Assembly: GCF_001429605.1 (NCBI RefSeq)
Contig: NZ_LMSS01000001.1
Location: 63,415-127,414 of the forward strand
Direction: 5' to 3'
DNA length: 64,000 nucleotides
Source: Phycicoccus sp. Soil802
GTDB lineage: Bacteria; Actinomycetota; Actinomycetes; Actinomycetales; Dermatophilaceae
Shown here: positions 1 through 64,000 of the stretch, one piece after another
Layout of the letters: each line of letters begins with the position of its first letter
Position numbering within the stretch: the stretch's first letter is position 1
Position numbers and translations under genes: made by a program
The notes under the pieces: generated by a model
Database searches by the model: none
Told to the model about the DNA's origin: nothing
Seen by the model: only the letters and a program-made list of their open reading frames with translations

Positions 1-2
1 TC

Positions 3-548
3 CACTGGGACAAGTTCTCGCACGGCAAGGTCGCCTTCTGGTTGTGGGCCGGCCTCTACTTCACGGCACCCTTCCTCGTCGTCGCTGCTTGGCTCGCCAA
101 CCAGCGGTATGCCGCGCCGCCGGCCCCGGACGCCCCTCGCCTCGGCCGGGTGGCCCGGCGAGTCGTGGGCGGCACGGGCGCCCTTGCCCTCGTCACCGGG
201 CTGTTCCTCTTCCTCGCACCCGAGCTGGCGATCCCGGTCTGGCCGTGGCCGCTCACCCCGCTGACCAGCCGAGTCGTAGGTGCGACGTTCTGCCTCGGCT
301 GCGCCGGCCTCGCGGTGCTGCGTGACCCGCGGTGGGAGACGGTCCGGGTGATGCGCCGGGTGCAGCTCGTGATGTTCACCCTCATCCTCGTGGCGGTCGT
401 GCGGGCCCGACACGAGTTCTTCACCGACCGTCCTCTGACCTGGGTGATGGGCATGGGCTTCGTCGTGATGTTCGTCGGCTCGGCCGCGTCGGCGCTGTCC
501 CGGCCACGCGGCATACCCACTGCGGCGACTCCGCGGCATACGCCCTGA
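3..548 (+). CDS. Integral membrane protein, C-terminal part (5' end outside window)
   Basis: The reading frame is open to the left edge, with in-frame codons from position 3 (HWDKFSHGK...) before the first possible start codon, so the real start lies outside the window. At least four hydrophobic segments are visible (around nt 33-95, 165-225, 265-315 and 440-490), separated by basic loops. This is a polytopic inner-membrane protein of unknown function with no catalytic motif I recognise. The tail (PRGIPTAATPRHTP) is encoded by two direct copies of the GGCATAC word, so the last dozen residues may not be conserved. The next gene, an MmpL exporter, has its own promoter and is probably not co-transcribed. 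Confidence 0.7.
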   Translation, partial: HWDKFSHGKVAFWLWAGLYFTAPFLVVAAWLANQRYAAPPAPDAPRLGRVARRVVGGTGALALVTGLFLFLAPELAIPVWPWPLTPLTSRVVGATFCLGCAGLAVLRDPRWETVRVMRRVQLVMFTLILVAVVRARHEFFTDRPLTWVMGMGFVVMFVGSAASALSRPRGIPTAATPRHTP

Positions 549-618
549 TTTGCCCGAGACCTCCTCAGGGTCACCCCTGAACGCCCCCTGAACCCGCGCC
601 CAACTCGCGCGAAAATCG

Positions 619-648
619 TTGTCCGTCAAAGCAACCGCGGCCTACGGT
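619..648 (+). promoter_or_regulatory. Predicted promoter of the MmpL gene
   Basis: A TTGTCC -35-like hexamer (619-624) and a TACGGT -10 hexamer (643-648, matching TAnnnT) are separated by 18 nt. Transcription would start near 655, which argues against an ATG at 651 and supports the Shine-Dalgarno-preceded ATG at 705. Confidence 0.5.
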
Positions 649-704
649 GGATGACAACGTCGCCGGGCAGGGGGTGCGACCAAACTCGAGGTGAGGGACA
701 GACG

Positions 705-2849: not shown

Positions 2850-2909
2850 CCCTTCAGGCAGTCCGGCGACCCAGCTCCACCCCGCGCGGCACATGTCAGC
2901 GGCGCGGCA

Positions 2910-2915
2910 TACGGT
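2910..2915 (+). promoter_or_regulatory. -10 box, predicted leaderless start of the aldo/keto reductase
   Basis: TACGGT ends 6 nt before the ATG at 2922, so transcription should begin at or next to the start codon. The hexamer overlaps a copy of the GGCATAC word. Confidence 0.45.
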
Positions 2916-3947: not shown

Positions 3948-3986
3948 GAGGGGTATGCCGCGTGGTCACCAGGCGGCATACCCCTC
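3948..3986 (+). terminator. GTATGCC-paired inverted repeat (probable terminator) after the aldo/keto reductase
   Basis: The 14-nt arms GAGGGGTATGCCGC (3948-3961) and GCGGCATACCCCTC (3973-3986) are perfect complements around an 11-nt centre that is itself nearly palindromic. There is no clear T-tract. It is one of four near-identical intergenic hairpins in the window. Confidence 0.75.
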
Positions 3987-4106: not shown

Positions 4107-6011
4107 ATGCTTCGCACGTCCCACCGCGCGACGACAGCCGCGCTCACCGGCGCGACCGCCCTCGCCCTCATCATCACCGGCGGGTATGCCGCCGGCGCGG
4201 CCTCCGCGACGACCGTCACCCTCAGTCCGGGTGACGCTGTCGCGGCGGCGCTCGCCGGGGACACGCCGGGCCTGGCCCGGCTGCTCGACAACGGCACGCC
4301 GAGTGGACGCGCGATCGCGACCTTCGACGGCACCCCCACGGCGACGCAGGTGACCGCCCTCAAGGCCCTCGGCCTCACGGTCCAGCCCATGAAGCGGCTC
4401 CCGCTCGCGCTGGTCAGTGGCACCGTGGCGCAGTTCCGCTCGGCGGTCACGACGGGCGTGGCGAACGACGTGTACCCGGACGAGAGCATCGACCTGCTCG
4501 ACACGACCTCCTCCGACGCGATGGGCGGCGCCGCGCTGCGGGCCAAGGGGCTCACCGGCAAGGGCGTCACGGTCGGTGTCGTCGACTCCGGTTGCGACGC
4601 AACGCATCCCGACCTCGCCCAGCGGGTGAAGCACAACGTCTCCCTCGTCAGTGGTGAGTACGCCAACCTCCCGGCCGACTCGTCGACGACGCTCGTCGTG
4701 CCGGCGGACCAGGGGCCGTACTCGAACACCGACCTCGGCTCGGGACACGGCACCCACGTCGCCGGGATCATCGCCGCCGACTCCAGCTCGGTCACCGACG
4801 GCTCGCGCTACGGCGTCGCCCCGGATGCGGACCTGGCCTGCTTCGCGATCGGTGCGGTCCTGTTCACGACCGCTGTCGTCACCGCCTACGACTACATGCT
4901 CGACCAGCCCGACCTGCTCGGCATCGACGTCGTCAACAACAGCTGGGGCAACTCCTACCGCCAGTTCGACCCGCGCGACCCGGTGGCCGTGGCGACCAAG
5001 GCCGTGGTGGACCAGGGCGTCACCGTCGTCTTCGCGGCCGGCAACTCCGGCTCCGAGAACGCCGAGCTCAGCCTCAACCCGTTCAGCCAGTCCCCGTGGG
5101 TCATCTCGGTGGCGGCCGGTTCGGTGGACCGGCACCGCGGCGACTTCTCCTCGAACGGGCTGACCCACGACAACTCCCAGCCGACCGGCATCACGGCCGG
5201 TGGCCACACGGTCTACACGGGCGACCGGATCGGGCTCGTGCACCCGGACGTGACAGCCCCGGGCGTCGACATCTCCTCGACGTGCGACACCACCGGCACC
5301 GTGGTCGGTCCGTGCCCGCCCGGTGAGAACACCACCGCCTCCGGCACGTCGATGGCCTCCCCGCACATCGCCGGGGCAGCGGCCGTGCTCAAGCAGGCCA
5401 ACCCGGCGCTCACGCCCGACCAGGTCCGGCTCGCGCTCCAGGCGACCGCCAGCCCCGTCACGAACGACGACGACACCGGCACGTTGCCGTTCTGGCAGAT
5501 CGGCTACGGCTACGCGAACCTCGACAAGGCCGTTGCCCTGGTCAGCAGTCGCAGCTGGGCCAAGGACCTCGCCAGGGCCAGCACCCAGGCCGACGCGCGG
5601 GTCCTGGCGGCTGACGGCTGGAAGGTCGCCCGCGGTGACTTCTGGACCTACGACAGCCCGCGCGCCACGGTCGGCGGCACGGACAGCCACACCTACACCG
5701 CACCGGTGGGCGCGGGCGTCACGTCGCTGAAGGTCTCGCTGTCCCACCCGTCGCTGGCTGCCGTCGGCATCAACGGCACCAGCTACACGGTCACGGTCAA
5801 GGACCCGTCGGGTGCCGTCATCGGCACCTCGACCGAGTCCTTCACCGCAGGTGCCGGCACGGCGACCGTCCAGGTGCCGGTGACCTCGCCGGGCACCTAC
5901 ACCTTCGATGTCGTGGGCAACTACGCCGTCTCCGACCCCGACACGCTCGACTCCGACAGTGTCGGTGGGCGGATGGTGACCCTGCACGTGGCCCAGCTGC
6001 AGAAGGGCTGA
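4107..6011 (+). CDS. Secreted subtilisin-like serine protease (S8 family)
   Basis: A 634-residue exported protease. A signal peptide is evident (basic start, hydrophobic segment to about residue 30). A prodomain-like region runs to about 140, followed by the peptidase S8 domain with the full catalytic set: Asp160 in VGVVDSGCD, His214 in GSGHGTHVAG, oxyanion Asn313 in AAGNSGSEN and Ser415 in ASGTSMASPH. After about residue 500 a beta-rich C-terminal domain ends in the HTYTAPVGAG... segment, perhaps a P-like or prepeptidase-C-like module. The ATG at 4107 has GGAGG just upstream; an in-frame start at 3990 would lie before the signal peptide and is rejected. A GTATGCC hairpin follows the stop. 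Confidence 0.93.
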   Translation: MLRTSHRATTAALTGATALALIITGGYAAGAASATTVTLSPGDAVAAALAGDTPGLARLLDNGTPSGRAIATFDGTPTATQVTALKALGLTVQPMKRLPLALVSGTVAQFRSAVTTGVANDVYPDESIDLLDTTSSDAMGGAALRAKGLTGKGVTVGVVDSGCDATHPDLAQRVKHNVSLVSGEYANLPADSSTTLVVPADQGPYSNTDLGSGHGTHVAGIIAADSSSVTDGSRYGVAPDADLACFAIGAVLFTTAVVTAYDYMLDQPDLLGIDVVNNSWGNSYRQFDPRDPVAVATKAVVDQGVTVVFAAGNSGSENAELSLNPFSQSPWVISVAAGSVDRHRGDFSSNGLTHDNSQPTGITAGGHTVYTGDRIGLVHPDVTAPGVDISSTCDTTGTVVGPCPPGENTTASGTSMASPHIAGAAAVLKQANPALTPDQVRLALQATASPVTNDDDTGTLPFWQIGYGYANLDKAVALVSSRSWAKDLARASTQADARVLAADGWKVARGDFWTYDSPRATVGGTDSHTYTAPVGAGVTSLKVSLSHPSLAAVGINGTSYTVTVKDPSGAVIGTSTESFTAGAGTATVQVPVTSPGTYTFDVVGNYAVSDPDTLDSDSVGGRMVTLHVAQLQKG

Positions 6012-6024
6012 GCCACCCGGGACT

Positions 6025-6071
6025 GACGGAGCGGTATGCCGCGTGGTGACCACGCGGCATACCGCTCCGTC
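6025..6071 (+). terminator. GTATGCC-paired inverted repeat, 23-bp arms
   Basis: Arms at 6025-6047 and 6049-6071 are perfectly complementary around a single G. Each arm contains GCGGTATGCCGCGTGGT or its complement. It lies between the convergent subtilisin and YciI genes, so it could terminate both. Confidence 0.8.
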
Positions 6072-9794: not shown

Positions 9795-9833
9795 GCGGGG
9801 TATGCCGCGTGGTGACCACGCGGCATACCCCGC
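9795..9833 (+). terminator. GTATGCC-paired inverted repeat, 19-bp arms
   Basis: Arms 9795-9813 and 9815-9833 are perfect complements around one G, with the same core as the hairpins at 6025 and 15334. It lies between the convergent HNH and ECF41 genes, 9 bp from the ECF41 stop. Confidence 0.8.
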
Positions 9834-10784: not shown

Positions 10785-11734
10785 GTCCGCACCCGTTCGG
10801 TGGAGGTCAGCTCGGCGAACCCCTGCCGCCAGCTCGGGTGCGAGGGCTCCCAGCCGAGCTCGCGCTTGGCCTTGGCGTTCGAGGCGCCCCGCAACTCGGT
10901 CATCATCGCCACTCCGATCTCCCCGGTCAGCAACCGTCCCACGAACCGCGGCACGTGCATCGGCTCCTTCGCCCCCAACGTACGCGCCAGGACGGGCAGC
11001 CACTCGGCGACCTTCGCGGGTTCGTCGTCGACGACGTTGTAGACCCCGCGGTGACCGTGGTCGATCGCCGCGACGGTCGCCTCGGCAGCGTCGGCGATGT
11101 GGATGAACGACCACACCGCACCGCCGTTGCCCACGACCGGGAACTTGCGCTGCCGCACGGCGTCGGTCTGCTCCCCGTCGGGTCCGAGCGACGTGCCGGG
11201 CCCGTAGAAACCGCCGTAGCGCAGCACGATCCCCTCGGTCCAGGTGGCCGCGAGGACTGCGTCCTCGACGTGCTTGATGGCCGCGACCGTCTGGCGCATC
11301 TCCTTGGCCGCCCCGACGCCGAACGTGTCCTCCTCGGTCTTCACCAGTCCGCCGACGCGTTCGTATGCCGCGAAGAAGCTCTGCGCGACGAACCGCTTCA
11401 CCCCGACGGCCTGACCGGCCGAGAGCAGGTGGTCGGTGCCCTCGCGGCGGAGCCGGTTGGTCATCGCGAACGCCTGGTCGAAGTGGCGCAGGTCCATCGG
11501 GCCGATCGAGGTCAGCTGGTGGACGATCACGTCGGGCTGCGCCCGCCCGACCGCCTCGGCGACCTGGTCGGCGTCGAGGGCGTCGGCCACGACCGGCTCG
11601 GCACCCAGATCGCGGAGCAGCTGCTGCTTCGACGCACTCCGCGTCATCCCCGTGACCTCGTGGCCTGCCCGCACCAGCAACGGCACGAGCTGCTGGCCGA
11701 TGGCTCCGGTGGCTCCTGCGACGAACACCTTCAT
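10781..11734 (-). CDS. NAD(P)-dependent epimerase/dehydratase family protein (ECF41 partner)
   Basis: A 317-residue extended short-chain dehydrogenase/reductase. The Rossmann glycine motif is at the N-terminus (MKVFVAGATGAIGQQL), followed by an acidic segment (VVADALDAD) and later HQLTSIGP. The canonical YxxxK catalytic pair is not obvious to me, so this may be an atypical, NmrA-like or ligand-sensing member. The ATG at 11734 follows GAGGGAGAACC, a good ribosome site; the longer frame to 11797 is rejected. It is the first gene of a two-gene operon with the ECF41 sigma factor, the arrangement expected for sigma-factor-controlled redox partners. Confidence 0.88.
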   Translation of the reverse strand: MKVFVAGATGAIGQQLVPLLVRAGHEVTGMTRSASKQQLLRDLGAEPVVADALDADQVAEAVGRAQPDVIVHQLTSIGPMDLRHFDQAFAMTNRLRREGTDHLLSAGQAVGVKRFVAQSFFAAYERVGGLVKTEEDTFGVGAAKEMRQTVAAIKHVEDAVLAATWTEGIVLRYGGFYGPGTSLGPDGEQTDAVRQRKFPVVGNGGAVWSFIHIADAAEATVAAIDHGHRGVYNVVDDEPAKVAEWLPVLARTLGAKEPMHVPRFVGRLLTGEIGVAMMTELRGASNAKAKRELGWEPSHPSWRQGFAELTSTERVRT

Positions 11735-12892: not shown

Positions 12893-14245
12893 CTAGGGGC
12901 GCGGGAGCAGGGACGGGCGAGGCAGGTGGATCGCCACCGAGGTGAGACCGAGCCGCAGCGATGCAGCCCGAGCGAGGTGCCGGCACACCAGGAGCGTGAC
13001 GACTGCCGGGACCGCCCCCGACGCGAGAAGGGCCGTGCGGGCCCCGTAGGTCTCGGCCAACCACCCCACCACCGGTCCGCCCACCGCGCCGCTGCCGATG
13101 AAGACCAGCAGGTAGAGCCCGACGACGCGGCCACGCAGGTGGTCGACGGCTGCGAGCTGGACCAGGGACTGCGCCGACGTGAGGAAGCCGAGGTTGGCCG
13201 CGCCGACCGTGACCAGAAGGATCGTGAAGACCTCCTGTCCCGGTGCGGCCGCCGTCACGAGCAGGGCTGCGGCCAGCGTGGAGCCGGCGACCCCGACCGT
13301 GCGCAGACGCGGCTGCTGCCGACGACGCGCCGTGGTCAGCGCGCCCGCGAGGGCGCCCAGCGCGACGACACCGTTGAGCAGACCCAGCCCCGAGGCTCCG
13401 GAGTGGAACACGTCCTTGGCGTAGGCGGCGAGCGTCACCGGCAGGCTGATCGTGAAGAAGCCGAAGGCGCCGACCATGACGACGGGCCACAGGACGCTCG
13501 GGGTGTGCACGGCATACGACAGCCCGGCCCGGACCCCGGGCGCGCGACCACTCGCGCCGACGCGCGCGGCAGCCGCACGGCGGGCAGCGCGGACCTCCAC
13601 TCGGGTGGGCGTGCCGCGCATGCACAACATCGCGACGACGGGTCCCACGAAGGACACCGCGTTGACGACGAACGCCCAACCGGCACCGACCGTGCTCATC
13701 AGGAGGCCGCCGAGGACCGGCCCGGCCATCGCCCCGATCTGGAAGGTGCAGGAGACGAGGCTGATGGCGTTCGCGAGCTGGGGGCCGTCGACCACCTCGG
13801 ACACGAACGACTGGCGCACCGGGTTGTCGAGCGCCGCGACCGTCCCGAGGACGGCGGCCAGCAGGAAGACGTGCCAGACCTCGACCCGACCGCTGAGGGT
13901 CAGCACGGCCAGGGCGGTCGCTGTCAGCATCATCGAGACCTGCGTGCCGAGGAGCAGCTGGCGCTTCGGGAGGCGGTCGGCCAGCAGGCCGGCGTGCAGC
14001 CCGAACAGCAGGGTGGGCGCGAACTGGAACGCCGTGACCACCCCGACCGCGGTCGGGCTGTCGGTCATGGTCAGGACGAGCCAGTCCTGGGCGATGCGCT
14101 GGACCCACCCACCGGTGCCCGAGAGCAGCAGACCGGACAGCAGCAACCGGAAGTTGCGGTTGGCGAGGGAGGGGAAGGTGCGCGAGAAGTGTTGGGGGAG
14201 TAGTGGTGTGGAGATGCGGACAGAGGCAGCGTCGGTGGAGCTCAA
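12893..14245 (-). CDS. MFS transporter (EntS/DHA3-type exporter)
   Basis: A 12-TM major-facilitator exporter of about 450 residues. The N-terminal signature SLANRNFRLLLSGLLLSGTG, the WVQRIAQDWLVL helix and the intracellular loop GLLADRLPKRQLLL are typical of the EntS/multidrug-efflux subgroup. TM segments continue to the end (SGAVPAVVTLLVCRHLA). Only TTG codons are available as starts upstream of the conserved N-terminus. I choose the TTG at 14245 because a TACCTT -10 box (14259-14264, minus strand) lies just before it; the TTG at 14344 is the alternative. Divergent from a LysR regulator that presumably controls it. Confidence 0.88.
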   Translation of the reverse strand: MSSTDAASVRISTPLLPQHFSRTFPSLANRNFRLLLSGLLLSGTGGWVQRIAQDWLVLTMTDSPTAVGVVTAFQFAPTLLFGLHAGLLADRLPKRQLLLGTQVSMMLTATALAVLTLSGRVEVWHVFLLAAVLGTVAALDNPVRQSFVSEVVDGPQLANAISLVSCTFQIGAMAGPVLGGLLMSTVGAGWAFVVNAVSFVGPVVAMLCMRGTPTRVEVRAARRAAAARVGASGRAPGVRAGLSYAVHTPSVLWPVVMVGAFGFFTISLPVTLAAYAKDVFHSGASGLGLLNGVVALGALAGALTTARRRQQPRLRTVGVAGSTLAAALLVTAAAPGQEVFTILLVTVGAANLGFLTSAQSLVQLAAVDHLRGRVVGLYLLVFIGSGAVGGPVVGWLAETYGARTALLASGAVPAVVTLLVCRHLARAASLRLGLTSVAIHLPRPSLLPRP

Positions 14246-15333: not shown

Positions 15334-15364
15334 GGTATGCCGCGTGGTGCCCACGCGGCATACC
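15334..15364 (+). terminator. GTATGCC-paired inverted repeat after lysR
   Basis: GGTATGCCGCGTGG (15334-15347) and CCACGCGGCATACC (15351-15364) are perfect 14-bp arms around TGC. Same core as the hairpins at 3948, 6025 and 9795. Confidence 0.78.
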
Positions 15365-18068: not shown

Positions 18069-18258
18069 GATCCCGTCGCTTTCGCGCACCCCGCCCACTC
18101 CTTGCTCACGCCCCTGGCCGCTCGACCTCAGTGTCGAGGACCCGAGGATTCTGGACCATCCCTCGTGGTCGGTATGCCGCTTCCGTGCACTTACGTCCGA
18201 ACGGCCGACAGCTGGTCCGCAAGCCTCGCGCCCACTCGGTGCGTCCTCCTGGCCCTGC

Positions 18259-18711: not shown

Positions 18712-19323
18712 GTGAGTTCCAAGCACGGGTATGCCGCGGCGCTCAGCCTGCTTGTCGCGTGCGGGTTGGGTGCACTGGCGGGTTGCACCGGCGGGGCAGC
18801 CGACCCACCCGCGACCGGCAACGGCACGGCGGCCACCGGCGCGACGACCCCTCCGCCAGCCAGCTCCTCCCCACCGACCACGACGACATCCACCACCACG
18901 ACTCCCGGAGCGGTGCAGATCCCCGAAGCGGCCAGGGCTCACACCGAAGCCGGAGCCGAAGCCTTCGTGAAGTTCTACATGGAGACAGCCAACCGGGCAT
19001 GGGTAGAGCCGAATGCAACCCTGCTTCCGCCGTTGAGCGACTCTGGGTGCCTCTCCTGCCAGGAGATTCAGAAGACGGCCGTGGCGCTGGTCCGCGATGG
19101 TCAGCACTACGAGAGCAGCCCGGTGACGGTGACCAGAGTGGCCGCATTCGATGGGGCGCCGAAAGGTCAGCAGTACGTGCGACTGTTCATGACGCAGCAC
19201 AGGGTCAACGTCGTTGACACGGCAGGCAAGGTGGTGCTGACGGACCCGAAACAGTCTTTGGCCCGCACGGCCGGAGTTATCTGGAAGGAGACGTCATGGC
19301 GAATGTACGGAATCGCCGACTAG
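18712..19323 (+). CDS. DUF6318-family lipoprotein
   Basis: A 203-residue lipoprotein. The signal peptide ends in the lipobox LAGC, with the lipidated cysteine at residue 25, followed by a Thr/Pro/Ser-rich linker to about residue 68. The folded domain starts at EAARAHTEAGAEAFVKFYM, contains a CLSC disulphide-type pair, and matches the actinobacterial DUF6318 pattern (a domain of unknown function). It should be anchored to the outer face of the membrane. GGAGGGGGAG supports the GTG at 18712. The next gene starts 28 bp before its stop, so the two are co-translated. Confidence 0.88.
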   Translation: MSSKHGYAAALSLLVACGLGALAGCTGGAADPPATGNGTAATGATTPPPASSSPPTTTTSTTTTPGAVQIPEAARAHTEAGAEAFVKFYMETANRAWVEPNATLLPPLSDSGCLSCQEIQKTAVALVRDGQHYESSPVTVTRVAAFDGAPKGQQYVRLFMTQHRVNVVDTAGKVVLTDPKQSLARTAGVIWKETSWRMYGIAD

Positions 19324-30300: not shown

Positions 30301-30348
30301 GAGATGGGTATGCCGGGCGCTCACCGCCGCGGCGTACGCTCCCGATTA

Positions 30349-30470: not shown

Positions 30471-30618
30471 CACGTGTCCCGCACCGTCTCCGGCGGTGTC
30501 GCCGGTGCACCCTCTGCGGAGGTGGCACCAGCAGCTCGGTCAGCCAGTCTCGATCGGGACCCACCGGCATACGGGCCCCGACGCCGCAGCGCGGCACACG
30601 AGAGTGAAGGAACTTCAG

Positions 30619-46157: not shown

Positions 46158-46631
46158 CTAGGAGCGGGTTTTCAGGGCGACCTGGCGCTTGATCCGGCTC
46201 AGCATGCCGACCATGCCGCGCAGCCGCAGCGGTGAGACCGCCTCGCCCAGCGAGAACCGGTACGGCGCGTCCTCGGGCACCGCGAGCACCTCGTCGACGG
46301 TGAGCCCGTCGAGGCCCTCGTGCAGGATCCCGGCGAAACCCCGCGTGGTCGGCGCCTCCTGGGGGGCCGAGAAGAACAGGTGCACGGGGCGGTCTCCCGG
46401 TGAGTCCGCCGGGTCGTCCCCGACCTCCACGGCGAGGAAGATCGGCGACTGGCACTCGTGGACCTGTTCCATCTCACCCAGCCGACCGGCATACCTCTCC
46501 GGGAGCTCGGGCAGCCCCTCGCTGAACTCCAACAGCAGCTCCAGCCGTTGCGGCGCAAGGAGATCGGCGAAGTCGTCGGCGATCTCCTGCATCGCCGTCG
46601 GCAGCTCCGCTCGGGCCGTGTCCTGGGTCAC
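46158..46631 (-). CDS. SufE-family Fe-S cluster assembly protein
   Basis: A 157-residue SufE-type protein that accepts persulfide sulfur from a cysteine desulfurase (SufS) and passes it on to iron-sulfur assembly. The active Cys60 lies in the conserved loop MEQVHECQSPIFLAVEV. The N-terminal helices (MQEIADDFADLLAPQRLELL) and the C-terminal RGMVGMLSRIK are typical. It starts 7 bp after the sseA stop on the same strand, so the pair forms a sulfur-transfer operon in which a sulfurtransferase could supply or share persulfide. Start: the GTG at 46631. Confidence 0.93.
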   Translation of the reverse strand: MTQDTARAELPTAMQEIADDFADLLAPQRLELLLEFSEGLPELPERYAGRLGEMEQVHECQSPIFLAVEVGDDPADSPGDRPVHLFFSAPQEAPTTRGFAGILHEGLDGLTVDEVLAVPEDAPYRFSLGEAVSPLRLRGMVGMLSRIKRQVALKTRS

Positions 46632-46638: not shown

Positions 46639-47544
46639 TCACTTCTCCACGGGCACGCGGACCGCGTTGCCCCACTCGGTCCACGACCCGTCGTAGTTGC
46701 GCACGGCGTCGAAGCCGAGCAGGTGGGTCAGCACGAACCACGTGTGCGACGAGCGCTCACCGATGCGGCAGTAGGCGATCGTGGGGTCGCTCGGCGAGAG
46801 CCCCTGCTCGGTGAGGTAGATGGCCTCGAGGTCCTCGCGGGACTTGAAGGTGCCGTCCTCGTTGGCCGCGCGGGCCCACGGCACCGACTTGGCGCCGGGG
46901 ATGTGGCCGCCGCGCATGGCGCCCTCCTGCGGGTAGTCGGGCATGTGCAGCAGCTCGCCGGAGTACTCGCCGGGGGAGCGGACGTCGACCAACGGCCCCC
47001 CGAGGTGGGCCAGCACGTCGTCCTTGAACGCCCGGATCGGTGCGTCGTCACGCTCCACGATCGGGTATGCCGCGTCGCCGGACAGCGGCGTCACCTGCGG
47101 CACGTCCTTGGTCAGCTCGCGGCCCTCGGCGACCCACTTGGTGCGGCCGCCGTCGAGCAGCCGGACGTCCTCGTGGCCGAAGAGGCTCATCACCCACAGG
47201 GCGTAGGCCGCCCACCAGTTGTTCTTGTCGCCGTAGATGACGACGGTCGTGTCGCGCCCGACCCCGCGCGCCGACATGACGGACGCGAACTGCTCGGCGT
47301 CGACGTAGTCGCGCACGACGGGGTCGTTGAGGTCCTGGTGCCAGTCGAGCTTGAGCGCCCCAGGGATGTGGCCGGTCTCGTAGAGCAGCACGTCCTCGTC
47401 GGACTCGAGGACGACGACGCCGTCGGGGCCGCCGACCTTCCCGGCAGCGAGCTGCTCGGCCAACCACTCGGTGCTGACCAGCCGGTCGGGGTGGGCGTAG
47501 GCGGAGAAGGGGGACGGGTCGGTGGACGCAGCGGACTCAGGCAT
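46639..47544 (-). CDS. sseA: Thiosulfate/3-mercaptopyruvate sulfurtransferase (rhodanese family)
   Basis: A 301-residue two-domain rhodanese. The first domain is inactive (contains [20 protein letters not shown]); the second has the catalytic Cys259 in the loop [13 protein letters not shown]. The conserved interdomain pattern [14 protein letters not shown], then later [13 protein letters not shown] is diagnostic. The enzyme transfers sulfane sulfur; the loop sequence CRIGERS is that of mycobacterial thiosulfate sulfurtransferases (CysA/SseA group). A TAGCCT box 6 nt before the ATG at 47544 predicts a leaderless transcript shared with sufE. Confidence 0.93.
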
Positions 47545-48478: not shown

Positions 48479-48862
48479 ATGCCCATGAACCGATTCGGTG
48501 CCCTGCGCACCATCGCCACCGCGGTGCGTACCGCCACCCGTCCCGGGTCGCCCGGCATGGGCGAACGTCTGATGAGCCTGCCCAGGCTGTTCGCGGCCAC
48601 CTTCCGCGGTGAGTATGCCGGGACCACCCGCGGGCGGCTGCTGATGGTCCTCGGGGCGGTCGCCTACGTCGTGTCCCCGATCGACCTGGTCCCCGAGCTG
48701 GCCCTGTCGGTGTTCGGGCTGGCCGACGACGCGGTCGTCGTCTCGTGGATCGCGGCGACCGTGGTCAACGAGACCGAGTCGTTCCTCGCGTGGGAGCGGC
48801 TGGACCCGACTGCCAAGGGCGCGGCCGCGCGCGAGACCGTCCAGGGCGACGTCCTGCGGTAG
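48479..48862 (+). CDS. YkvA-family (DUF1232) membrane protein
   Basis: A 127-residue protein with the DUF1232/YkvA motif: RGRLLMVLGAVAYVVSPIDL, then VPELALSVFGLADDAVVVSW. One membrane-associated helical pair is predicted; the SPIDLVPE signature is diagnostic. Function unknown. AAGGAGGACGTCC precedes the ATG at 48479. A terminator-like hairpin follows 30 bp after the stop. Same direction as EcsC, 95 bp apart, and possibly co-transcribed. Confidence 0.92.
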   Translation: MPMNRFGALRTIATAVRTATRPGSPGMGERLMSLPRLFAATFRGEYAGTTRGRLLMVLGAVAYVVSPIDLVPELALSVFGLADDAVVVSWIAATVVNETESFLAWERLDPTAKGAAARETVQGDVLR

Positions 48863-50432: not shown

Positions 50433-51569
50433 ATGACCACGACCTCCCCACCACAGGCCACCTCCGGGGCGTGGCGGGACGGCGACCCGGTCGGCCGACG
50501 CCAGTTCGTCGACCTCGGCGCGGTCGAGCTCGAGCGCGGGGGTGTGCTGCCCGCTGTCCGGGTGGCCTACGAGACCTGGGGCGAGCTGAACGCCGCCGGC
50601 GACAACGCCGTCCTCGTGGAGCACGCCCTCACCGGGGACAGCCACGTCGACGGGCCGACCGGTCCCGGTCACCCCACCCCCGGGTGGTGGGACGGCCTCG
50701 TCGGGCCGGGCAAGCCCCTCGACTCCGACCGCTACTTCGTCGTGGCCGCCAACGTGCTGGGCGGCTGCCAGGGCAGCACCGGGCCCTCGAGCCCCGCGCC
50801 GGACGGCAGGCCGTGGGGCAGCCGCTTCCCGTTCATCACGGTCCGCGACCAGGTGCAGACCGAGGCCCTGCTGGCCGACGCCCTCGGGGTCGACCGCTGG
50901 CACACGGTCCTCGGCGGCTCGATGGGGGGCATGCGTGCGCTCGAGTGGGCCGTCACCCACCCCGAGCGGGTCGGCACGGCGATCGTGCTGGCCAGCACGG
51001 CATACGCGACCGCGGAGCAGATCGGCTGGTGCCAGGCCCAGCTGCTGGCCATCCGCGCCGACACGCACTTCCACGGCGGCGACTACTACGAGCACGTCAC
51101 CGGGCCCGAGACCGGGCTGGGGATCGCCCGGCGCATCGCGCACGTCACCTACCGCAGCGAGCTCGAGCTGCACGAGCGCTTCGGTCGCCAGCCGCAGCAA
51201 TCCGAGGACCCGCTGGGTGGCCGCGGTCGGTATGCCGTGGAGTCCTACCTCGACCACCACGCCGGCAAGCTGGCCGGCCGCTTCGACGCGAACTCCTACG
51301 TGGTCCTCACCGAGGCGATGAACTCGCACGACATCGGTCGCGGTCGTGGGGGAGTGGCGGCAGCGCTCGAGCGGGTGACCGCCGACCTCGTCGTGGTGGC
51401 CGTCGACTCGGACCGGCTCTACCCCCCGAGGCTGTCGCACGAGATCGCCGACGCGGTCCCCGGGACGGCGCTTCACACGGTCCACTCCGACTACGGCCAC
51501 GACGGCTTCCTGATCGAGATCGAGCAGGTCGGTGCGATCGTGGCGAAGGTGCTCGCTGGCCCTGCCTGA
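50433..51569 (+). CDS. metX: Homoserine O-acetyltransferase
   Basis: A 378-residue alpha/beta hydrolase-fold enzyme acetylating L-homoserine with acetyl-CoA, the first committed step of methionine synthesis in many bacteria. The nucleophile elbow is GGSMGG (Ser163). The segment YETWGELNAAGDNAVLVEHA, the HALTGDSH oxyanion region, the Asp in SDRLYPP and the His in GHDGFLIE complete the catalytic triad pattern. It has GGAG before the ATG at 50433. It lies behind a SAM-IV-type riboswitch, the same device as metY (30619-31938), so both enzymes of the sulfhydrylation route respond to SAM. Confidence 0.95.
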   Translation: MTTTSPPQATSGAWRDGDPVGRRQFVDLGAVELERGGVLPAVRVAYETWGELNAAGDNAVLVEHALTGDSHVDGPTGPGHPTPGWWDGLVGPGKPLDSDRYFVVAANVLGGCQGSTGPSSPAPDGRPWGSRFPFITVRDQVQTEALLADALGVDRWHTVLGGSMGGMRALEWAVTHPERVGTAIVLASTAYATAEQIGWCQAQLLAIRADTHFHGGDYYEHVTGPETGLGIARRIAHVTYRSELELHERFGRQPQQSEDPLGGRGRYAVESYLDHHAGKLAGRFDANSYVVLTEAMNSHDIGRGRGGVAAALERVTADLVVVAVDSDRLYPPRLSHEIADAVPGTALHTVHSDYGHDGFLIEIEQVGAIVAKVLAGPA

Positions 51570-53997: not shown

Positions 53998-54042
53998 GCA
54001 AGGCAGTACGTCGGTTGGTCCGTGCACGCTGGACTGACGCGG

Positions 54043-54105
54043 CATACCAAGGCAGTGACCAAAGGCCCCGAGACCATCTCGGGGCCTTTCGTCATCGCGG
54101 TATGC
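54043..54105. terminator. sigA terminator nested inside an inverted GTATGCC pair
   Basis: The inner hairpin has perfect arms AAAGGCCCCGAGA (54061-54073) and TCTCGGGGCCTTT (54077-54089), loop CCA. Outside it, GGCATACC (54041-54048) and GGTATGCC (about 54099-54106) form an outer inverted pair. Here the word orientation is reversed relative to the four other paired copies. Confidence 0.85.
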
Positions 54106-54116
54106 CGTCCAGCGAG

Positions 54117-56504: not shown

Positions 56505-57763
56505 GCCACACCCACCCGGCTGGTCGACCCGGAGAGCACTCCCCAGACCGAGGGCAGGTCGTCACCGGCGCCGACGACGGTCACCGTCCAGCCGGCACCG
56601 CGCAGCACGGGCACGCAGGCGAGCTCGTCGCTGCTGCCGGGCCGGTGTCGCCTGGTGGCGGTGAAGCCGTCGGGGTCCAGCACGATGGCCAGCGCGGTCC
56701 CGCCGGGCTGGCGCAGCGAGGCCACCCGCCGGGCGAGCTCCTCGTCGAGGTCGGTGACGACGGCCAGGACCAGGCCGCCGGAGGCGGTCACCGGGTGGGC
56801 GGACTGGAGGACGTCGGCGAACTGGTCGTCCGAGCCGGTCTCGGCCATCGCCAGCACGTCGAGCAGCGGGTCGACCTCCATCGCGCTGGCAGCCCGGCTG
56901 TCCTCGGCGGTCTCGTCGCTGATGAGGTGCACGGCATACCCCTGGTCGATCAGGTGCGCTGCGACGGAGGCGCACGCGGTCACGCCCCACTCGAACGAGC
57001 CGGAGGTGCCCGAGCCGTGGTGCCCGCGGGCTCGTGAGTCGAGGACGATCGCGGCGCGGCGGCGCGCGGGTCGGTCCTCCTGGCGGACCATCAGCTCGCC
57101 GGTCTTGGCGGTCGCCGGCCAGTGGATGCGACGCAGGTCGTCGCCGTCGCGGTAGGACCGGATCGACACGTCGTCCTCGCCGTGCAGGGCGACCATGTGG
57201 GGGATCGCACCCTCGGCGCCGACCCCGCTGCCCGGGGGCTGCCCACCACCGAGCGGCACGATCTTGGGCAGCACCAGGATGTCGCTGGACCCCGAGATGG
57301 CCGCCACGCGGGTGCTCAGGCCGAACGGGTCACGCAACCGCACGCCGAGGGGCCCCAGCCGGTGCCGGCCCCGCACGTGGGAGCGCACCGAGTAGTGCAC
57401 CTCCTGCCGGTCGCCGCGGCGCAGACGTGGCACGACGAAGCGCGGCCGGTCGCCGAGGGCGTAGTCGAGCTGCTCCTCGGCCATCAGCAGGGGGCTGGCT
57501 CCTCCGCCGGCGTTCTCGATGGCCAGCGTGACCAGGGACTGCTCGTCGACCTGGATGCGCCCGGGCACCGCGGTGCGCTCGAGCGCGAACCGCAGGTCGT
57601 GCCGGCGCATCAGCAGACCGCTGAGGAGGGGGAGCGCGACGAGCAGCACACCGATCCGGGTGAGGTCGGTGAAGCCGAGCCCGATCCCGCACAGCACCAA
57701 CGTGATTCCCGCCGCGACGAACGCACGGCCTCGGGTCGTGAGCAGGTCTCGGAGTCGACGCAC
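56501..57763 (-). CDS. DUF58 domain protein
   Basis: A 420-residue protein. Two TM helices at the N-terminus (AFVAAGITLVLCGIGLGF; IGVLLVALPLLSGLLM) anchor it. The DUF58 signature IRSYRDGDDLRRIHWPATAK, then TGELMVRQ, is exact. The C-terminal half has a von Willebrand A-like pattern (AAIVLDSRARGHH). It is the middle gene of the MoxR operon, overlapping the transglutaminase gene by 4 bp and 10 bp from moxR. DUF58 proteins usually work with MoxR AAA+ chaperones on metal-dependent complex assembly. Confidence 0.92.
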   Translation of the reverse strand: MRRLRDLLTTRGRAFVAAGITLVLCGIGLGFTDLTRIGVLLVALPLLSGLLMRRHDLRFALERTAVPGRIQVDEQSLVTLAIENAGGGASPLLMAEEQLDYALGDRPRFVVPRLRRGDRQEVHYSVRSHVRGRHRLGPLGVRLRDPFGLSTRVAAISGSSDILVLPKIVPLGGGQPPGSGVGAEGAIPHMVALHGEDDVSIRSYRDGDDLRRIHWPATAKTGELMVRQEDRPARRRAAIVLDSRARGHHGSGTSGSFEWGVTACASVAAHLIDQGYAVHLISDETAEDSRAASAMEVDPLLDVLAMAETGSDDQFADVLQSAHPVTASGGLVLAVVTDLDEELARRVASLRQPGGTALAIVLDPDGFTATRRHRPGSSDELACVPVLRGAGWTVTVVGAGDDLPSVWGVLSGSTSRVGVA

Positions 57764-58852: not shown

Positions 58853-59229
58853 GGCCGCCACGTTGCGTCCCGTCCGGGTGGTCGCTCGATCTTCCCCCAC
58901 AACGCACCACCAAAACAGGGGGTATGCCGTGTCGTGACCTGTGAAGTCCGCTCGACCAGTCGTCCGGCGCCGCGGCGCCGCCGGATGCGAGCTCCCGGGG
59001 ATGCCTGGCGCGCTCGTGGCCGGCCTTGGCGGCGGAGCCACGAGCCCCTGTGCGGCTCGGTTCTGGGAATTCCACACCACTTTCCACCACCCCTCTGACC
59101 TGCTAAAACATCGAACTAGGTGGGGGAATTGCGCCAAAGTGGCTGACCTGGCGGGTAACGGTGGAGTAAAGTGGGGGAAACGAGAGGGCCGTGGGGTCCT
59201 CGACCGGGTCGGCAGGGGAGGTGGGCGCG
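58853..59229. other. 377-bp divergent region between moxR and mraZ
   Basis: Contains one unpaired GTATGCC word (58922), mirrored CCAC repeats near 59078-59095 and the MraZ boxes at 59151-59180. No gene is supported; a rightward frame through it is a shadow. Confidence 0.5.
59151..59180 (+). promoter_or_regulatory. MraZ-binding direct repeats in the dcw promoter
   Basis: Three 10-bp direct repeats in register (GCGGGTaacg at 59151, GTGGAGtaaa at 59161, GTGGGGgaaa at 59171). GTGG(A/G)G boxes separated by 4 nt are the established MraZ target pattern, so MraZ should autoregulate the mraZ-rsmH-ftsL-ftsI operon. Confidence 0.7.
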
Positions 59230-59850: not shown

Positions 59851-59899
59851 CACCGAGACCACGCAGCACCAGCACCGAGACCACGCAGCACCAGCACCG
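59851..59899 (+). repeat. 22-bp tandem repeat in the mraZ-rsmH spacer
   Basis: Two perfect copies of a 22-nt unit (59851-59872 and 59873-59894, starting CACCGAGACCACGCAGC), then the start of a third. The whole 59662-59916 spacer is C-rich and holds no gene I can support. Confidence 0.85.
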
Positions 59900-59916
59900 T
59901 CCAGCAGGAGATGTCG

Positions 59917-60927
59917 ATGAACGCACGAGGAATGGCCGCCGACCGGCACGTTCCCGTGCTTCGCGACCGAATCGTCGAGCTGCTGGCCCCGGCCCTCGAG
60001 GCGCCCGGCGCCGTCTACCTCGACGGCACCCTGGGCATGGGCGGCCACGCCGAGGCCATCCTCGAGCGCTGCCCCACTGCGCTCGTCGTGGGCATCGACC
60101 GCGACCAGGAGGCGCTGGGCCTCGCGGCCGAGCGGCTCGAGCCGTATGCCGGTCGCGTCACCTTCGTGCACGCCGTGTACGACGACGTGCCGCGGGCCCT
60201 CGAGGAGGCGGGCGTGGACCACGTCGACGCCGCCCTCTACGACCTGGGGGTGTCCTCGCTCCAGCTCGACGAGGCCGACCGCGGCTTCTCGTACAGCCAG
60301 GACGCACCACTCGACATGCGGATGGACCAGTCGGCCGGGCTCACCGCCGCCGAGGTGCTCAACACCTACGACGCGAGCGATCTCGAGGCGGTGCTGCGCG
60401 ACTTCGGCGAGGAGCGGTTCGCCCGCAAGATCGTCGCGGCGATCGTCCGCGAGCGCGAGGCCGAGCCGTTCACCACCTCCGGCCGACTCGTCGACCTGCT
60501 CAAGAAGGTGGTGCCGGCCGCGTCGCAGAAGAGCGGGGGACACCCGGGCAAGCGCACCTTCCAGGCGCTGCGCATCGAGGTCAACGCCGAGCTGTCGGTC
60601 TGGGCGGCCGCCCTGCCGAACGCGATCGACGCCCTGGCGGTCGGTGGCCGCATCGCGGTCCTGTCGTACCACTCGCTCGAGGACCGGATCACCAAGCGCG
60701 TCCTCACCGCCGGCGCCAAGGGCAGCAGCCCCCAGGGGCTCCCGGTCGAGCTCCCCGAGCACGCGGCATACCTGCGGCTGCTGACCCGCGGCGCCGAAGA
60801 GGCGAGCGCCGAGGAGCAGGCCAGCAACCCCCGATCCGCCTCGGTGCGCCTGCGCGCCGCCGAGCGCACCCGAAGCACTCCTGCCACCGCTACCAACCGC
60901 AGCACCACGAAGGGAACGCACCGATGA
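59917..60927 (+). CDS. rsmH: 16S rRNA (cytosine1402-N4)-methyltransferase
   Basis: A 336-residue SAM-dependent methyltransferase modifying C1402 of 16S rRNA. Motif [18 protein letters not shown], then [14 protein letters not shown] and [20 protein letters not shown] are diagnostic; [20 protein letters not shown] and [12 protein letters not shown] follow. I take the ATG at 59917, where GGAG lies 6 nt upstream; the ATG at 59911 would be too close to it. The stop overlaps ftsL by 4 bp (ATGA), so translation is coupled. Part of the dcw cluster. Confidence 0.96.
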
Positions 60928-61571: not shown

Positions 61572-61633
61572 CCCGAGCGCACCACACCCCCGACCACCCT
61601 CACCGACACCCAGGACAGGACGCGAGGTACCCA

Positions 61634-63757
61634 GTGACGCAGACCCGAGGCAGCCGCCCCGGAGCCCCGCGCCCCACTGCGTCCTCGGGTCCGCGCCCGG
61701 CCCGCGCCGGCGCGCCACACCCCAAGGCCGGTGACCCGCGCAGCACGGCGGCGCGCAGGCCGCCCGGTGCCGGCCAGGCCCCCACGCCGGGCCCGAAGGC
61801 CACCAAGCCCACCAAGGCCACCAGACCCACCAAGCCGAAGCCGGCCAAGCCGGTCAGGGCCGCATCGGCCAAACCGGCCCGCGCGGGCCAGCGACCGGCC
61901 TCGCCGCCGCGCCCGCCGGGTCGGCGGAAGGTCAGCCTCGACGGGTCCAGCCCGCGTCGCCGGATGCGCACCATGACGGTCGCGGTCCTGTTCATCTTCA
62001 GCATCTTCGGCGCCCAGCTGCTGCGCCTGCAGGGCTTCGACGCCTCGGCGGTCTCCAAGGACGCGCAGTCGTCGCGCACGGCGACGATCCCGCTGCCCGC
62101 CCTGCGTGGCTCGATCACCGACCGCAACGGCACCATCCTCGCCTCGAGCATCGAGCGACGCACCGTGACCGTCGACCAGACGGCGGTGCCCTTCTACAAG
62201 AAGACCGTCAACGGAAAGCTCAAGACGGTGGGCGTGGCCGGTGCCGCAGCCGACCTGTCGCCACTGCTCGGCATCCCGGTGGCCACCCTCACCAAGGAGC
62301 TGACCGGCGAGGCGAAGTACCGCATCCTGCAGAAGAACGTCACGCCGCTCAACTGGCGCAAGATCTCCGAGCTCGGCGTCAACGGGATCTACTCCGAGGC
62401 GACCTCCGACCGCGTCTACCCGACCTCGACCGCGGCCTCGGCCCTGGTCGGCTTCGTCCAGTCGGACGGCTCGGCGGGTGGCGGGCTCGAGGTCCTGATG
62501 GACAAGACCCTCAAGGGCAAGTCGGGCAAGACCATCTTCGAGCAGTCCCAGGACGGCCGGCCGATCCCCAACGCGCGCCAGGAGACGATCAACCCGGTGC
62601 CCGGTCGTGAGGTGCAGCTGACGATCGACTCCGACCTGCAGTGGTTCGCCCAGAATGCCGTGGCGCAGAAGGTGATCGAGACCCAGGCCCTCTCCGGGAC
62701 CGTGGTCGTCGAGAACGTCAAGACCGGCGAATTGCTCGCCGTCGCGTCCTACCCGACCTTCGACCCCAACCAGCCCGGGCAGTCCAGCGCGAACTGGACC
62801 AACAAGGCGTTCAACGACGTCTACGAGCCCGGCTCGACCGGCAAGGTGATGACCGCCGCCGCCGCGATCGAGCAGGGCGTGGTCACGCCGTCGACCGTGG
62901 TCGAGGTGCCCAACCGGATCCGGCGCGCGGCCACCGAGTTCAAGGACAGCCACGACCACCCGACCGAGTACCTCACCTTCGCCGGGGTCCTCGCGCAGTC
63001 GAGCAACATCGGCACCATCCTGGCCGGCGAGAAGGTCAAGGCGTCGACGATGTACGACTACTTCAAGAAGTTCGGCCTGGGCCAGACCTCGGGGATGGGG
63101 TTCCCCGGTGAGGGGCCCGGCCTGCTGACCAACGTCAAGGACTGGAACGGCTCGCAGCGCTACACGGTGCTCTTCGGTCAGGGCCTGTCGGTCAACGCCC
63201 TGCAGGCCGCCGGGGTCTTCCAGACGATCGCCAACAACGGCGTCCGGATCCCCCCGCGGATCGTGGCCGCGACCGGTGACGGCAAGGGTGGTTTCACGCC
63301 TGCGGAGAAGCCGGCTCCGGTGAAGGTGGTCTCGCCCGAGACGGCCAAGCAGGTGCGCGACATGCTCGAGGGCGTCGTCGGCAAGGAGGGCACCGCGCCC
63401 GAGGCCAAGATCCCCGGCTACCGCGTGGCCGGCAAGACGGGCACCGCCGACCGCTACGACGCGCGGGTCGGTGGCTACTCGGGCAAGACCGCCAGCTTCA
63501 TCGGGTTCGCTCCGGCCGACGACCCCGAGATCGTCGTCGCGGTCACGCTGCAGCGGCCGATCAAGGGCTACTTCGGTGGCGTGGTCGCCGGCCCGGTGTT
63601 CCACGACGTGATGACCTACGCGCTGCAGGAGCTCCAGATCCCGCCGACCGGCACGACCTCCCCGGTGGCGAAGATCCGCGTCGACAAGACCCCGGCCGCG
63701 GGTGACACCACCGTGCTCCGCGACCGGAGGTCTGGCGCATCCGGCGCGTCCCACTGA
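61634..63757 (+). CDS. ftsI: Septal penicillin-binding protein FtsI (PBP3)
   Basis: A 707-residue class B penicillin-binding protein, the transpeptidase of septal peptidoglycan. An extended Pro/Lys/Arg-rich cytoplasmic arm (about 110 residues) precedes the TM ([18 protein letters not shown]). The dimerisation region contains [13 protein letters not shown]. The transpeptidase domain has SxxK at Ser401 (STGK), SxN at Ser456-Asn458 (SSN) and KTG at Lys601 (GKTGTAD). The GTG at 61634 is 62 bp after ftsL. Typical dcw cluster member; beta-lactam target. Confidence 0.96.
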
Positions 63758-63760
63758 CGG

Positions 63761-63766
63761 TAGGCT
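63761..63766 (+). promoter_or_regulatory. -10 box in front of murE
   Basis: TAGGCT ends 8 nt before the GTG at 63775, in the 17-bp gap after ftsI. It suggests an internal promoter giving a leaderless or near-leaderless murE transcript. Confidence 0.35.
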
Positions 63767-63774
63767 CGCTGTCC

Positions 63775-64000
63775 GTGTCATCACCCCGTCCGTCGTCCCC
63801 GCACGCCACCCTCGCGGCGGTCGCCTCGCTGGTCGACGGTGAGCTGGCCGGCGCCGACCGGGTGGTCACGGGCGTGACCCTCTCGTCGCAGGACGTGGTC
63901 GAGGGCGACCTCTACGCCGCCCTCCCCGGGGCCAACACCCACGGCGCGAGGTATGCCGCGGGGGCACGGGACGCCGGCGCGGTCGCCGTGCTCACCGACG
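63775..64000 (+). CDS. murE: UDP-MurNAc-tripeptide synthetase MurE (N-terminal part, cut by window end)
   Basis: The first 75 codons of the gene after ftsI; it runs off the window. The frame reads [20 protein letters not shown] and then [20 protein letters not shown] and [20 protein letters not shown]. The block V-T-G-V-T-x-x-S, then G-D-x-Y-A-A-L-P-G-x-x-x-H-G, is the N-terminal MurE-type substrate domain. MurE adds the third amino acid to the UDP-MurNAc dipeptide in peptidoglycan synthesis. Its position directly after ftsI is canonical. The GTATGCC word occurs inside (GG-TAT-GCC, Tyr-Ala). Confidence 0.9.

What the first reader, a model, noticed from the sequence alone, without database searches (positions are those of the whole stretch)
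1..64000. GTATGCC/GGCATAC: about 40 copies, read as Tyr-Ala or Ala-Tyr and paired at gene ends
Seen: by eye I count about 41 copies (e.g. 108, 510, 536, 2908, 4187, 11364, 13509, 18170, 18728, 22849, 27464, 35600, 37912, 42968, 47066, 51231, 60147, 63951). With about 72% G+C and independent bases one expects roughly six on both strands. Inside genes the word almost always reads as ...TAT GCC (Tyr-Ala) or GCA TAC (Ala-Tyr), using codons otherwise avoided; one exception I saw reads Arg-Met-Pro (23788). Usually it extends to GTATGCCG. Known for comparison: DNA-uptake words of Neisseria and Pasteurellaceae are genome-wide, tolerated in genes, and form inverted pairs that act as terminators. Inference: this could be an uptake-like, methylation or nucleoid-protein motif of this lineage.
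Basis: partly seen in the sequence, partly recalled or inferred. Interest (0 to 1): 0.8.

Follow-up and report, generated by a model that had tools for sequence, protein, structure and literature searches.

The report
DNA-uptake-like word in an actinobacterium
One exact eight-letter DNA word is sprinkled about every two kilobases through the genomes of many members of one actinobacterial family, in the way that Neisseria and Haemophilus mark their own DNA for uptake, which suggests that these Gram-positive bacteria also tag their DNA for self-recognition.

Summary
All 41 GTATGCC/GGCATAC of the window continue to GTATGCCG (2 to 4 expected). The genome (4.29 Mb) holds 2,241 GTATGCCG against 51 for the reversed word. 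The word is exact, equal on both strands, without replication polarity, denser between genes and densest between convergent gene ends, where facing pairs form hairpins. In genes it is about 20 times commoner than after synonymous shuffling. Its sites are conserved above background in four motif-rich sister species, not in a motif-poor one. In its family 108 of 186 genomes are rich in it and 62 poor; by my reading of the tables none of 362 order-mates and 392 phylum members outside the family reaches 100 per Mb. The genome encodes ComEA, ComEC and Tad pilus clusters, the kind of set that Micrococcus luteus needs for transformation. Best reading: a DNA uptake sequence of Dermatophilaceae (placing inferred), recognised by a Tad-type competence pilus. 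Uptake and receptor are not shown, and several word-poor genomes keep these genes. Such words are described in print for Gram-negative Neisseriaceae and Pasteurellaceae; this would be a new, independent case.

The parts
107..114 (+). GTATGCCG, in gene (Tyr-Ala)
509..516 (-). GTATGCCG, in gene (Arg-Gly-Ile-Pro)
534..541 (-). GTATGCCG, in gene (Arg-His-Thr-Pro)
2905..2912 (-). GTATGCCG, intergenic
3953..3981 (.). facing pair of GTATGCCG (3953-3960 + and 3974-3981 -), 29-bp hairpin with inner mismatches, 20 bp after a gene end
4184..4191 (+). GTATGCCG, in gene (Tyr-Ala)
6034..6062 (.). facing pair of GTATGCCG (6034-6041 + and 6055-6062 -), 29-bp hairpin between convergent genes
9800..9828 (.). 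facing pair of GTATGCCG (9800-9807 + and 9821-9828 -), 29-bp hairpin between convergent genes
11363..11370 (+). GTATGCCG, in gene (Ala-Tyr on the gene strand)
13510..13517 (-). GTATGCCG, in gene (Tyr-Ala)
15335..15363 (.). facing pair of GTATGCCG (15335-15342 + and 15356-15363 -), 29-bp hairpin 15 bp after a gene end
18172..18179 (+). GTATGCCG, intergenic
18729..18736 (+). GTATGCCG, intergenic
22846..22853 (-). GTATGCCG, in gene (Ala-Tyr)
23788..23795 (+). GTATGCCG, in gene (Arg-Met-Pro)
27464..27471 (+). GTATGCCG, in gene (Tyr-Ala)
28452..28459 (-). GTATGCCG, in gene (Tyr-Ala)
30308..30315 (+). GTATGCCG, intergenic
30565..30572 (-). GTATGCCG, intergenic
35596..35603 (-). GTATGCCG, in gene (Ala-Tyr)
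37913..37920 (+). GTATGCCG, in gene (Tyr-Ala)
38029..38036 (-). GTATGCCG, in gene (Ala-Tyr)
39238..39245 (-). GTATGCCG, in gene (Tyr-Ala)
42965..42972 (-). GTATGCCG, in gene (Tyr-Ala)
43710..43717 (+). GTATGCCG, in gene (Ala-Tyr)
46487..46494 (-). GTATGCCG, in gene (Tyr-Ala)
47065..47072 (+). GTATGCCG, in gene (Ala-Tyr)
48613..48620 (+). GTATGCCG, in gene (Tyr-Ala)
50998..51005 (-). GTATGCCG, in gene (Ala-Tyr)
51230..51237 (+). GTATGCCG, in gene (Tyr-Ala)
54040..54047 (-). GTATGCCG, intergenic
54100..54107 (+). GTATGCCG, intergenic
56932..56939 (-). GTATGCCG, in gene (Tyr-Ala)
58922..58929 (+). GTATGCCG, intergenic
60144..60151 (+). GTATGCCG, in gene (Tyr-Ala, MraW methylase family)
60764..60771 (-). 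GTATGCCG, in gene (Ala-Tyr, MraW methylase family)
63951..63958 (+). GTATGCCG, in gene (Tyr-Ala)

Best explanation
GTATGCCG is a DNA uptake sequence: a self-recognition word that makes DNA fragments carrying it preferred substrates for natural transformation in this actinobacterial family (close to Pedococcus; Dermatophilaceae of GTDB, Intrasporangiaceae of older taxonomy; placing inferred, family names recalled). A surface component of a Tad/Flp-type competence pilus (a TadE/F/G-like minor pilin is my first candidate; ComEA or an unknown protein are alternatives) binds the word on outside DNA; ComEA and ComEC bring one strand in; recombination writes the word into the recipient's chromosome, so biased uptake gradually loads the genome with copies wherever they are tolerated: synonymous Tyr-Ala/Ala-Tyr sites in genes, spacers, and above all gene ends, where two facing copies can double as transcription terminators. 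Shown here: the word, its excess, exactness, symmetry, spacing, conservation, clade limits and the presence of the competence genes. Inferred: that the word drives uptake, that the pairs terminate transcription, and which protein reads the word.
For: Excess about 44-fold over the reversed word genome-wide, robust to Markov and codon controls. Exactness: 280 exact copies in 544 kb against 11.8 by Markov; the most enriched one-letter variant is CTATGCCG, 14 vs 4.6. Strand symmetry in the 108 rich genomes (101,176 vs 101,512) and no correlation with GC skew in 20 samples of a sister chromosome (r 0.03). Density 0.44/kb in genes vs 1.13/kb outside, 2.46/kb between convergent genes vs 0.92 and 0.87 in other spacers; 12 facing pairs intergenic on both sides, 11 of them within 44 bases of a gene's 3' end. 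Spacing more even than random (CV 0.80 vs 0.95 +/- 0.07, 1.1% of 2,000 null runs as low). Sites intact in four motif-rich sisters more often than background (p 0.009 or less), at background in motif-poor G010. The two lowest of 20 bins in G003 look like acquired islands. Family-limited. ComEA, ComEC and three Tad-type clusters in the genome; ComEC and two Tad clusters are needed for transformation in M. luteus (PMC4322843, sections 7 and 11). 30 of 30 motif-rich genera have the cluster-C TadE1 pilin; 5 of 18 poor genera lack it (Fisher p 0.005, not corrected for relatedness, 5 intermediate genera left out).
Against: No uptake or transformation test; the first 15 listed papers of each of two searches showed none on transformation in this family. 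No receptor identified; cluster-C minor pilins of rich and poor genomes do not differ obviously in net charge. Orthology of the Tad clusters with those of M. luteus was not tested. Many poor genomes keep the machinery: all 28 of genera g2 and g62 have ComEC and TadE1 matches, and G065, poor inside a rich genus, has ComEC and Tad clusters B and C. Rich genomes without TadE1: G027, and G198 (74% complete); G118 matches only weakly. No variant dialect was found in seven poor genomes. One-letter variants are hardly elevated, unlike in Neisseriaceae (passages) and Haemophilus (recalled). One of 38 control words was spaced as evenly as the motif. In G007 the comparison with similar words gave p 0.06.
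Confidence: 0.7

Rival explanations
1. A Chi-like recombination hot spot: an 8-mer read in unwinding DNA by the RecBCD/AdnAB-type repair nuclease, favoured throughout the core genome.
For: Length (8 nt), exactness and core-genome enrichment resemble Chi (recalled). The word is conserved.
Against: No strand polarity seen, whereas known Chi is polar (recalled); the GC skew of G003 is weak, so replichores are not sharply defined. Facing pairs at gene ends are not expected. The word is scarce in single species inside rich genera (G065, G127, G151), although repair enzymes are core functions (inference).
Confidence: 0.1
2. A binding site of a lineage-specific nucleoid or chromosome-organising protein, spaced about every 2 kb.
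For: Even spacing, both strands, family-limited.
Against: Scarce in two island-like stretches, conserved above background only in sisters rich in it, denser at convergent gene ends. No candidate protein.
Confidence: 0.1
3. A methylation or restriction-modification recognition site.
For: A non-palindromic fixed word is possible for such systems (recalled).
Against: Restriction sites are normally avoided (recalled), not enriched about 44-fold over the reversed word; they change quickly between strains (recalled), while this word is abundant in 30 genera.
Confidence: 0.04
4. A terminator or RNA element; copies in genes are by-products.
For: 12 facing pairs intergenic on both sides with hairpin energies of about -20 to -40 kcal/mol.
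Against: 212 of 280 copies lie in genes and most copies are single; a terminator does not need one exact 8-mer.
Confidence: 0.04
5. A codon-pair or mutational-context effect of high-GC actinobacteria.
For: 117 of 212 gene copies lie in one frame, using Tyr-Ala.
Against: Synonymous shuffling gives 10.95 vs 214; spacers are richer than genes; 362 order-mates and 392 phylum members (7 counted in both) outside the family do not show it.
Confidence: 0.01

Closest known systems
DNA uptake sequence (DUS) of Neisseriaceae, read by the minor pilin ComP of a type IV pilus
   Same: Short word in hundreds to thousands of copies, in genes and in spacers, facing pairs associated with terminators, clade-wide with uneven density, competence genes present (PMC3630211, passages seen).
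   Different: Different word and phylum; 8 letters with hardly elevated one-letter variants; PilM of type IVa pili found in only 7 of 186 family genomes and not in this one, Tad clusters instead; ComP was not searched for; no dialects found. The six letters ATGCCG are shared with the 5' end of ATGCCGTCTGAA (PMC5031613 passage), outside the essential CTG core: probably chance.
Uptake signal sequence (USS) of Pasteurellaceae
   Same: Genome-wide self-word tied to natural competence (PMC5031613 passages; PMC2346458 and PMC1626085 seen in listing and start of abstract only).
   Different: 9-letter AAGTGCGGT, Gram-negative hosts.
Tad/Flp-pilus-dependent transformation of Micrococcus luteus
   Same: Same phylum; same kind of gene set: ComEA/ComEC plus Tad clusters, two of which are essential there (PMC4322843, sections 7 and 11).
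   Different: The phrase 'uptake sequence' does not occur in PMC4322843 or PMC12849477; the M. luteus genome itself was not scanned for words here.
Chi sites (RecBCD hot spots)
   Same: 8 nt, core-genome enrichment (recalled).
   Different: No polarity; facing pairs; scarce in single species of rich genera.

Membership tests
DNA uptake sequence (DUS/USS class) | One short word far above expectation genome-wide | tested here: met
   2,241 vs 51 reversed control in G000; Markov and codon controls
DNA uptake sequence (DUS/USS class) | Both strands, genes and spacers, facing pairs at gene ends | tested here: met
DNA uptake sequence (DUS/USS class) | Poor in recently acquired DNA | tested here: met
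   The 2 poorest of 20 sampled 20-kb bins of G003 (1 and 2 copies) have island-type genes and the lowest G+C; small sample. Phage TJE1 (host's motif status unknown) 2 copies vs 2 control in 49 kb
DNA uptake sequence (DUS/USS class) | Competence machinery encoded | tested here: met
   ComEA, ComEC, Tad clusters
DNA uptake sequence (DUS/USS class) | Absence of the word goes with loss of competence genes | tested here: inconclusive
   TadE1 absent in 5 of 18 poor genera and 0 of 30 rich ones; comEC in two frames and pilins far from the ATPase in G127; short ComEC match in G151; but G065 and genera g2 and g62 keep the genes, and split or weak ComEC matches occur in rich genomes too
DNA uptake sequence (DUS/USS class) | Dialects in related clades | tested here: inconclusive
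   7 poor genomes (60-200 kb each) show no comparable word
DNA uptake sequence (DUS/USS class) | Word raises DNA uptake or transformation | not testable with these tools
   needs experiment
Neisseria-type DUS with ComP on a type IVa pilus | Type IVa pilus genes present | tested here: not met
   PilM_2 in 7 of 186, not in G000; only PilM was searched
Neisseria-type DUS with ComP on a type IVa pilus | ComP receptor | not tested
   no ComP search was made
Chi or KOPS-like polar words | Strand bias along the replichore | tested here: not met
   109 vs 97 in 20 bins, r 0.03 with GC skew; the skew itself is weak
Restriction-modification site | Methylated at the word | not testable with these tools
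   needs native-read sequencing

The most novel reading that the evidence does not exclude
An independently evolved self-DNA uptake sequence in Gram-positive Actinomycetota, read by a Tad/Flp-type (type IVc) competence pilus: a third origin of sequence-tagged bacterial sex, carried by most genera of one family and repeatedly lost within it.
Probability: 0.65. Interest if true: 0.9.

Novelty: new variant of a known kind. Interest (0 to 1): 0.85.

Why it matters
Sequence-tagged uptake is described in a 2016 review for two Gram-negative families (PMC5031613, passages seen). A third, unrelated case in monoderm actinobacteria with a different pilus would show that it evolves repeatedly, would predict that much of a family of environmental bacteria is naturally transformable, and would give a practical handle for their genetics: donor DNA with the word should transform them better. 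The uneven density within the family, down to single species that are poor in the word, allows a test of the long-standing question of whether uptake words spread by biased uptake or by selection.

Tried and rejected
Other dialects: top 8-mers in 60-200 kb of seven poor relatives are modest, mostly 3- to 7-fold among the well-counted ones, and look like ribosome-binding or codon contexts (my guess). In 20-kb samples of order-mates (16 of 20 stretches were long enough) the strongest word, AAGCCCTT in G042, proved to be one repeated motif in similar genes; weaker ones, such as AGGAGTTC in G055 (9 vs 0.6), were not followed. As a check of power, in 19 of 20 own 20-kb pieces the top word was the motif or one overlapping it. 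Type IVa pilus: PilM found in 7 of 186 genomes. ComEC presence: 180 of 186, so it does not discriminate; split or weak ComEC matches occur in rich genomes too (G005, G096, G140, G148, G163, G172, G191, G203). Charge of minor pilins: no obvious difference. Codon-context and polarity readings. Prior reports: ten paper searches listed none for this word or for an actinobacterial uptake word; I saw only the listed papers of each, one search had 643 papers that hold the letters, and subscription journals and preprints are largely not held.
Full report
Observation. The window has 41 copies of GTATGCC on both strands against 1.95 in dinucleotide shuffles and 3.7 by a third-order Markov model; 41 of 41 continue with G, so the unit is GTATGCCG. 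In the whole genome (4,294,604 bases, 9 contigs) there are 1,160 + 1,124 GTATGCC vs 92 + 99 for the word read backwards, and 1,143 + 1,098 GTATGCCG vs 25 + 26.

Anatomy in 544 kb of the own genome (window plus stretches). There are 280 GTATGCCG against 11.8 by a third-order Markov model; one-letter variants occur near expectation, the largest relative excess being CTATGCCG, 14 vs 4.6. 212 lie wholly in genes by my own gene calls (0.44 per kb) and 68 not (1.13 per kb). In genes 117 of 212 put TAT GCC in frame; a synonymous shuffle gives 10.95 copies (largest 22 of 100 runs) against 214 (this script counts per gene and finds two more). 117 of the 231 TAT codons sit in the word, while TAC occurs 2,600 times. 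In those 117 copies, compared with codon-matched background, the word also prefers G before it (0.41 vs 0.17), and C or T then G after it (0.76 vs 0.45; 0.71 vs 0.38), so the soft consensus is gGTATGCCGyG. There are 14 facing (+ -) neighbours within 60 bases: 12 intergenic on both sides, one in coding sequence and one mixed. Seven of the 12 have the 29-bp form, of which GTATGCCGCGTGGTGACCACGCGGCATAC is an example. 11 of the 12 lie 12 to 44 bases from a gene's 3' end; one lies between divergent genes. Five neighbours face the other way (- +) and one pair is in tandem, within 80 bases. Density is 2.46 per kb between convergent genes vs 0.92 (co-directional) and 0.87 (divergent) in other spacers of at least 20 bases.

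Symmetry and spacing. In 364 kb of contig C1 there are 100 forward and 91 reverse copies; the most uneven of seven bins has 14 and 8. In twenty 20-kb samples of the single-contig sister G003 there are 109 forward and 97 reverse copies, with correlation 0.03 to GC skew, which is itself weak. Over the 108 rich genomes of the family: 101,176 vs 101,512. Sites merged within 100 bases have mean gap 2,063 and CV 0.80 vs 0.95 +/- 0.07 for random placement (1.1% of 2,000 runs as low); 38 other words of like abundance have CV 0.97 +/- 0.08, one as low as 0.79; counts per 10 kb have variance/mean 0.56.

Conservation. Against syntenic stretches of sister species, aligned ungapped copies of the window are intact in 21 of 28 (G003), 20 of 23 (G006), 17 of 21 (G004), 13 of 23 (G007) and 5 of 17 (G010), vs 0.41, 0.38, 0.35, 0.31 and 0.30 for other 8-mers of equal GC. 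Binomial p is 0.0003, 2e-6, 2e-5, 0.009 and 0.61. Against six similar words Fisher p is 0.002, 5e-5, 0.002, 0.06 and 0.56. Of the 41 copies 12, 16, 20, 17 and 23 could not be aligned in these five, and 1, 2, 0, 1 and 1 had gaps; these were left out. G002, on 20 kb only, had 6 of 8 (not). G010 has 625 copies genome-wide, G007 1,192, and G003, G006 and G004 have 1,927, 2,551 and 1,934: where the word is scarce its sites stand at background; 3 of the 12 changed sites in G010 read GTACGCCG.

Acquired DNA. Of the twenty G003 samples, 17 have 10 to 15 copies, one has 6 (ribosomal-protein-like genes by eye), and two have 1 and 2. Of four proteins scanned from the first, one is a phage integrase and one a transposase-like DDE protein; of six from the second, three match restriction-type helicase, AAA and UvrD-nuclease families and three match nothing. 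Their G+C (0.674, 0.662) is the lowest of the twenty. That they are acquired islands is inference.

Distribution. Family f1: 186 genomes (own included) in 53 genera. With my cut-offs 108 are rich (at least 100 per Mb and 2.4 times control), 62 poor (under 35 per Mb), 16 between; densities reach 1,356 per Mb. Three poor genomes sit in rich genera (G065, G127, G151). Outside the family, none of 362 order-mates and none of 392 phylum members (7 of them also) reaches 100 per Mb by my reading of the tables; the highest that I saw is G816 with 161 copies vs 30 in 1.8 Mb. 78 named actinobacterial loci (L071-L148, 1.38 Mb) have 10 vs 5 control, while the two Pedococcus loci have 8 and 5 in about 21 kb each. 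These two are the best matches to the own cluster-B TadA protein (79% and 68%; records of the own genome may be left out there), hence my placing near Pedococcus, an inference.

Machinery. The genome has ComEA (SLBB and HhH domains) next to ComEC (Competence and Lactamase_B domains), and three T2SSE-type ATPase loci over the family's cut-off: a large Flp cluster A, a cluster B beside a DEAD/MrfA-type helicase, and a cluster C with an Flp-like, two TadE-like and one TadG-like protein (some TadE matches below Pfam's cut-off). Type IVa PilM gave no match. In M. luteus ComEC and two Tad clusters are required for transformation; whether clusters B and C are their orthologues was not tested. ComEC is found in 180 of 186 family genomes, so competence is probably old in the family (inference). 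The cluster-C TadE1 pilin is found in 167 of 186. By genus 30 of 30 rich genera have it and 5 of 18 poor genera lack it (Fisher p 0.005; five intermediate genera left out). By genome 106 of 108 rich and 51 of 62 poor have it (p 0.0003; 16 intermediate left out, 6 of them without it). Neither test is corrected for shared ancestry or fragmented assemblies. G127 (poor, in a rich genus) has comEC in two reading frames (a sequencing error is not excluded) and its TadE1 about 39 kb from the cluster-C ATPase. G151 has only the first part of the ComEC domain, which may be a contig end. G202 has no TadE1 or TadE2 match behind its cluster-C TadC and only a 43-residue TadG-like match further on. Against this, G065, G011 and G102 have clusters B and C with pilins (in G102 the TadE2 match is partial) and ComEC, yet are poor in the word.

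Reading. Most hallmarks of an uptake sequence that I could compute are present; a receptor and dialects are not found. Machinery is necessary in my model but not sufficient: specificity must reside in a reader that the poor clades lack or lost. The step from genome pattern to uptake is inference. Neisserial DUS are described as overrepresented words, often as inverted pairs associated with terminators, with uptake bias as the favoured cause (PMC3630211, passages).

Limits. 

Noticed in passing
window 46046-46147: A long palindrome with arms of about 20 bases or more that recurs in ten other places of the own genome in the (capped) listing; unrelated to GTATGCCG, perhaps a genome-specific repeat or terminator family.
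   Followed up: no
window 59230-63757: Start of a division and cell-wall cluster: MraZ, MraW methylase and a penicillin-binding transpeptidase.
   Followed up: partly
L215 6905-11487: In sister G003 an AAA ATPase followed by a UvrD helicase-nuclease in a motif-poor stretch, reminiscent of Gabija-type defence (recalled; not scanned with PADLOC).
   Followed up: no
G816 (phylum sample): 161 GTATGCCG vs 30 control in 1.8 Mb, the clearest excess that I saw outside the family.
   Followed up: no
G065: Poor in the word (37 copies) inside a rich genus, with Tad clusters B and C and a full ComEC match: unexplained.
   Followed up: partly
G027 and G118: Rich in the word but TadE1 missing or a very weak match; possibly recent loss.
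   Followed up: no
G102 (L045-L048) and G134 (L063-L065): CGAAGGGG/CCCCTTCG is several-fold in excess in these two word-poor genomes of different genera; perhaps a ribosome-binding context.
   Followed up: no
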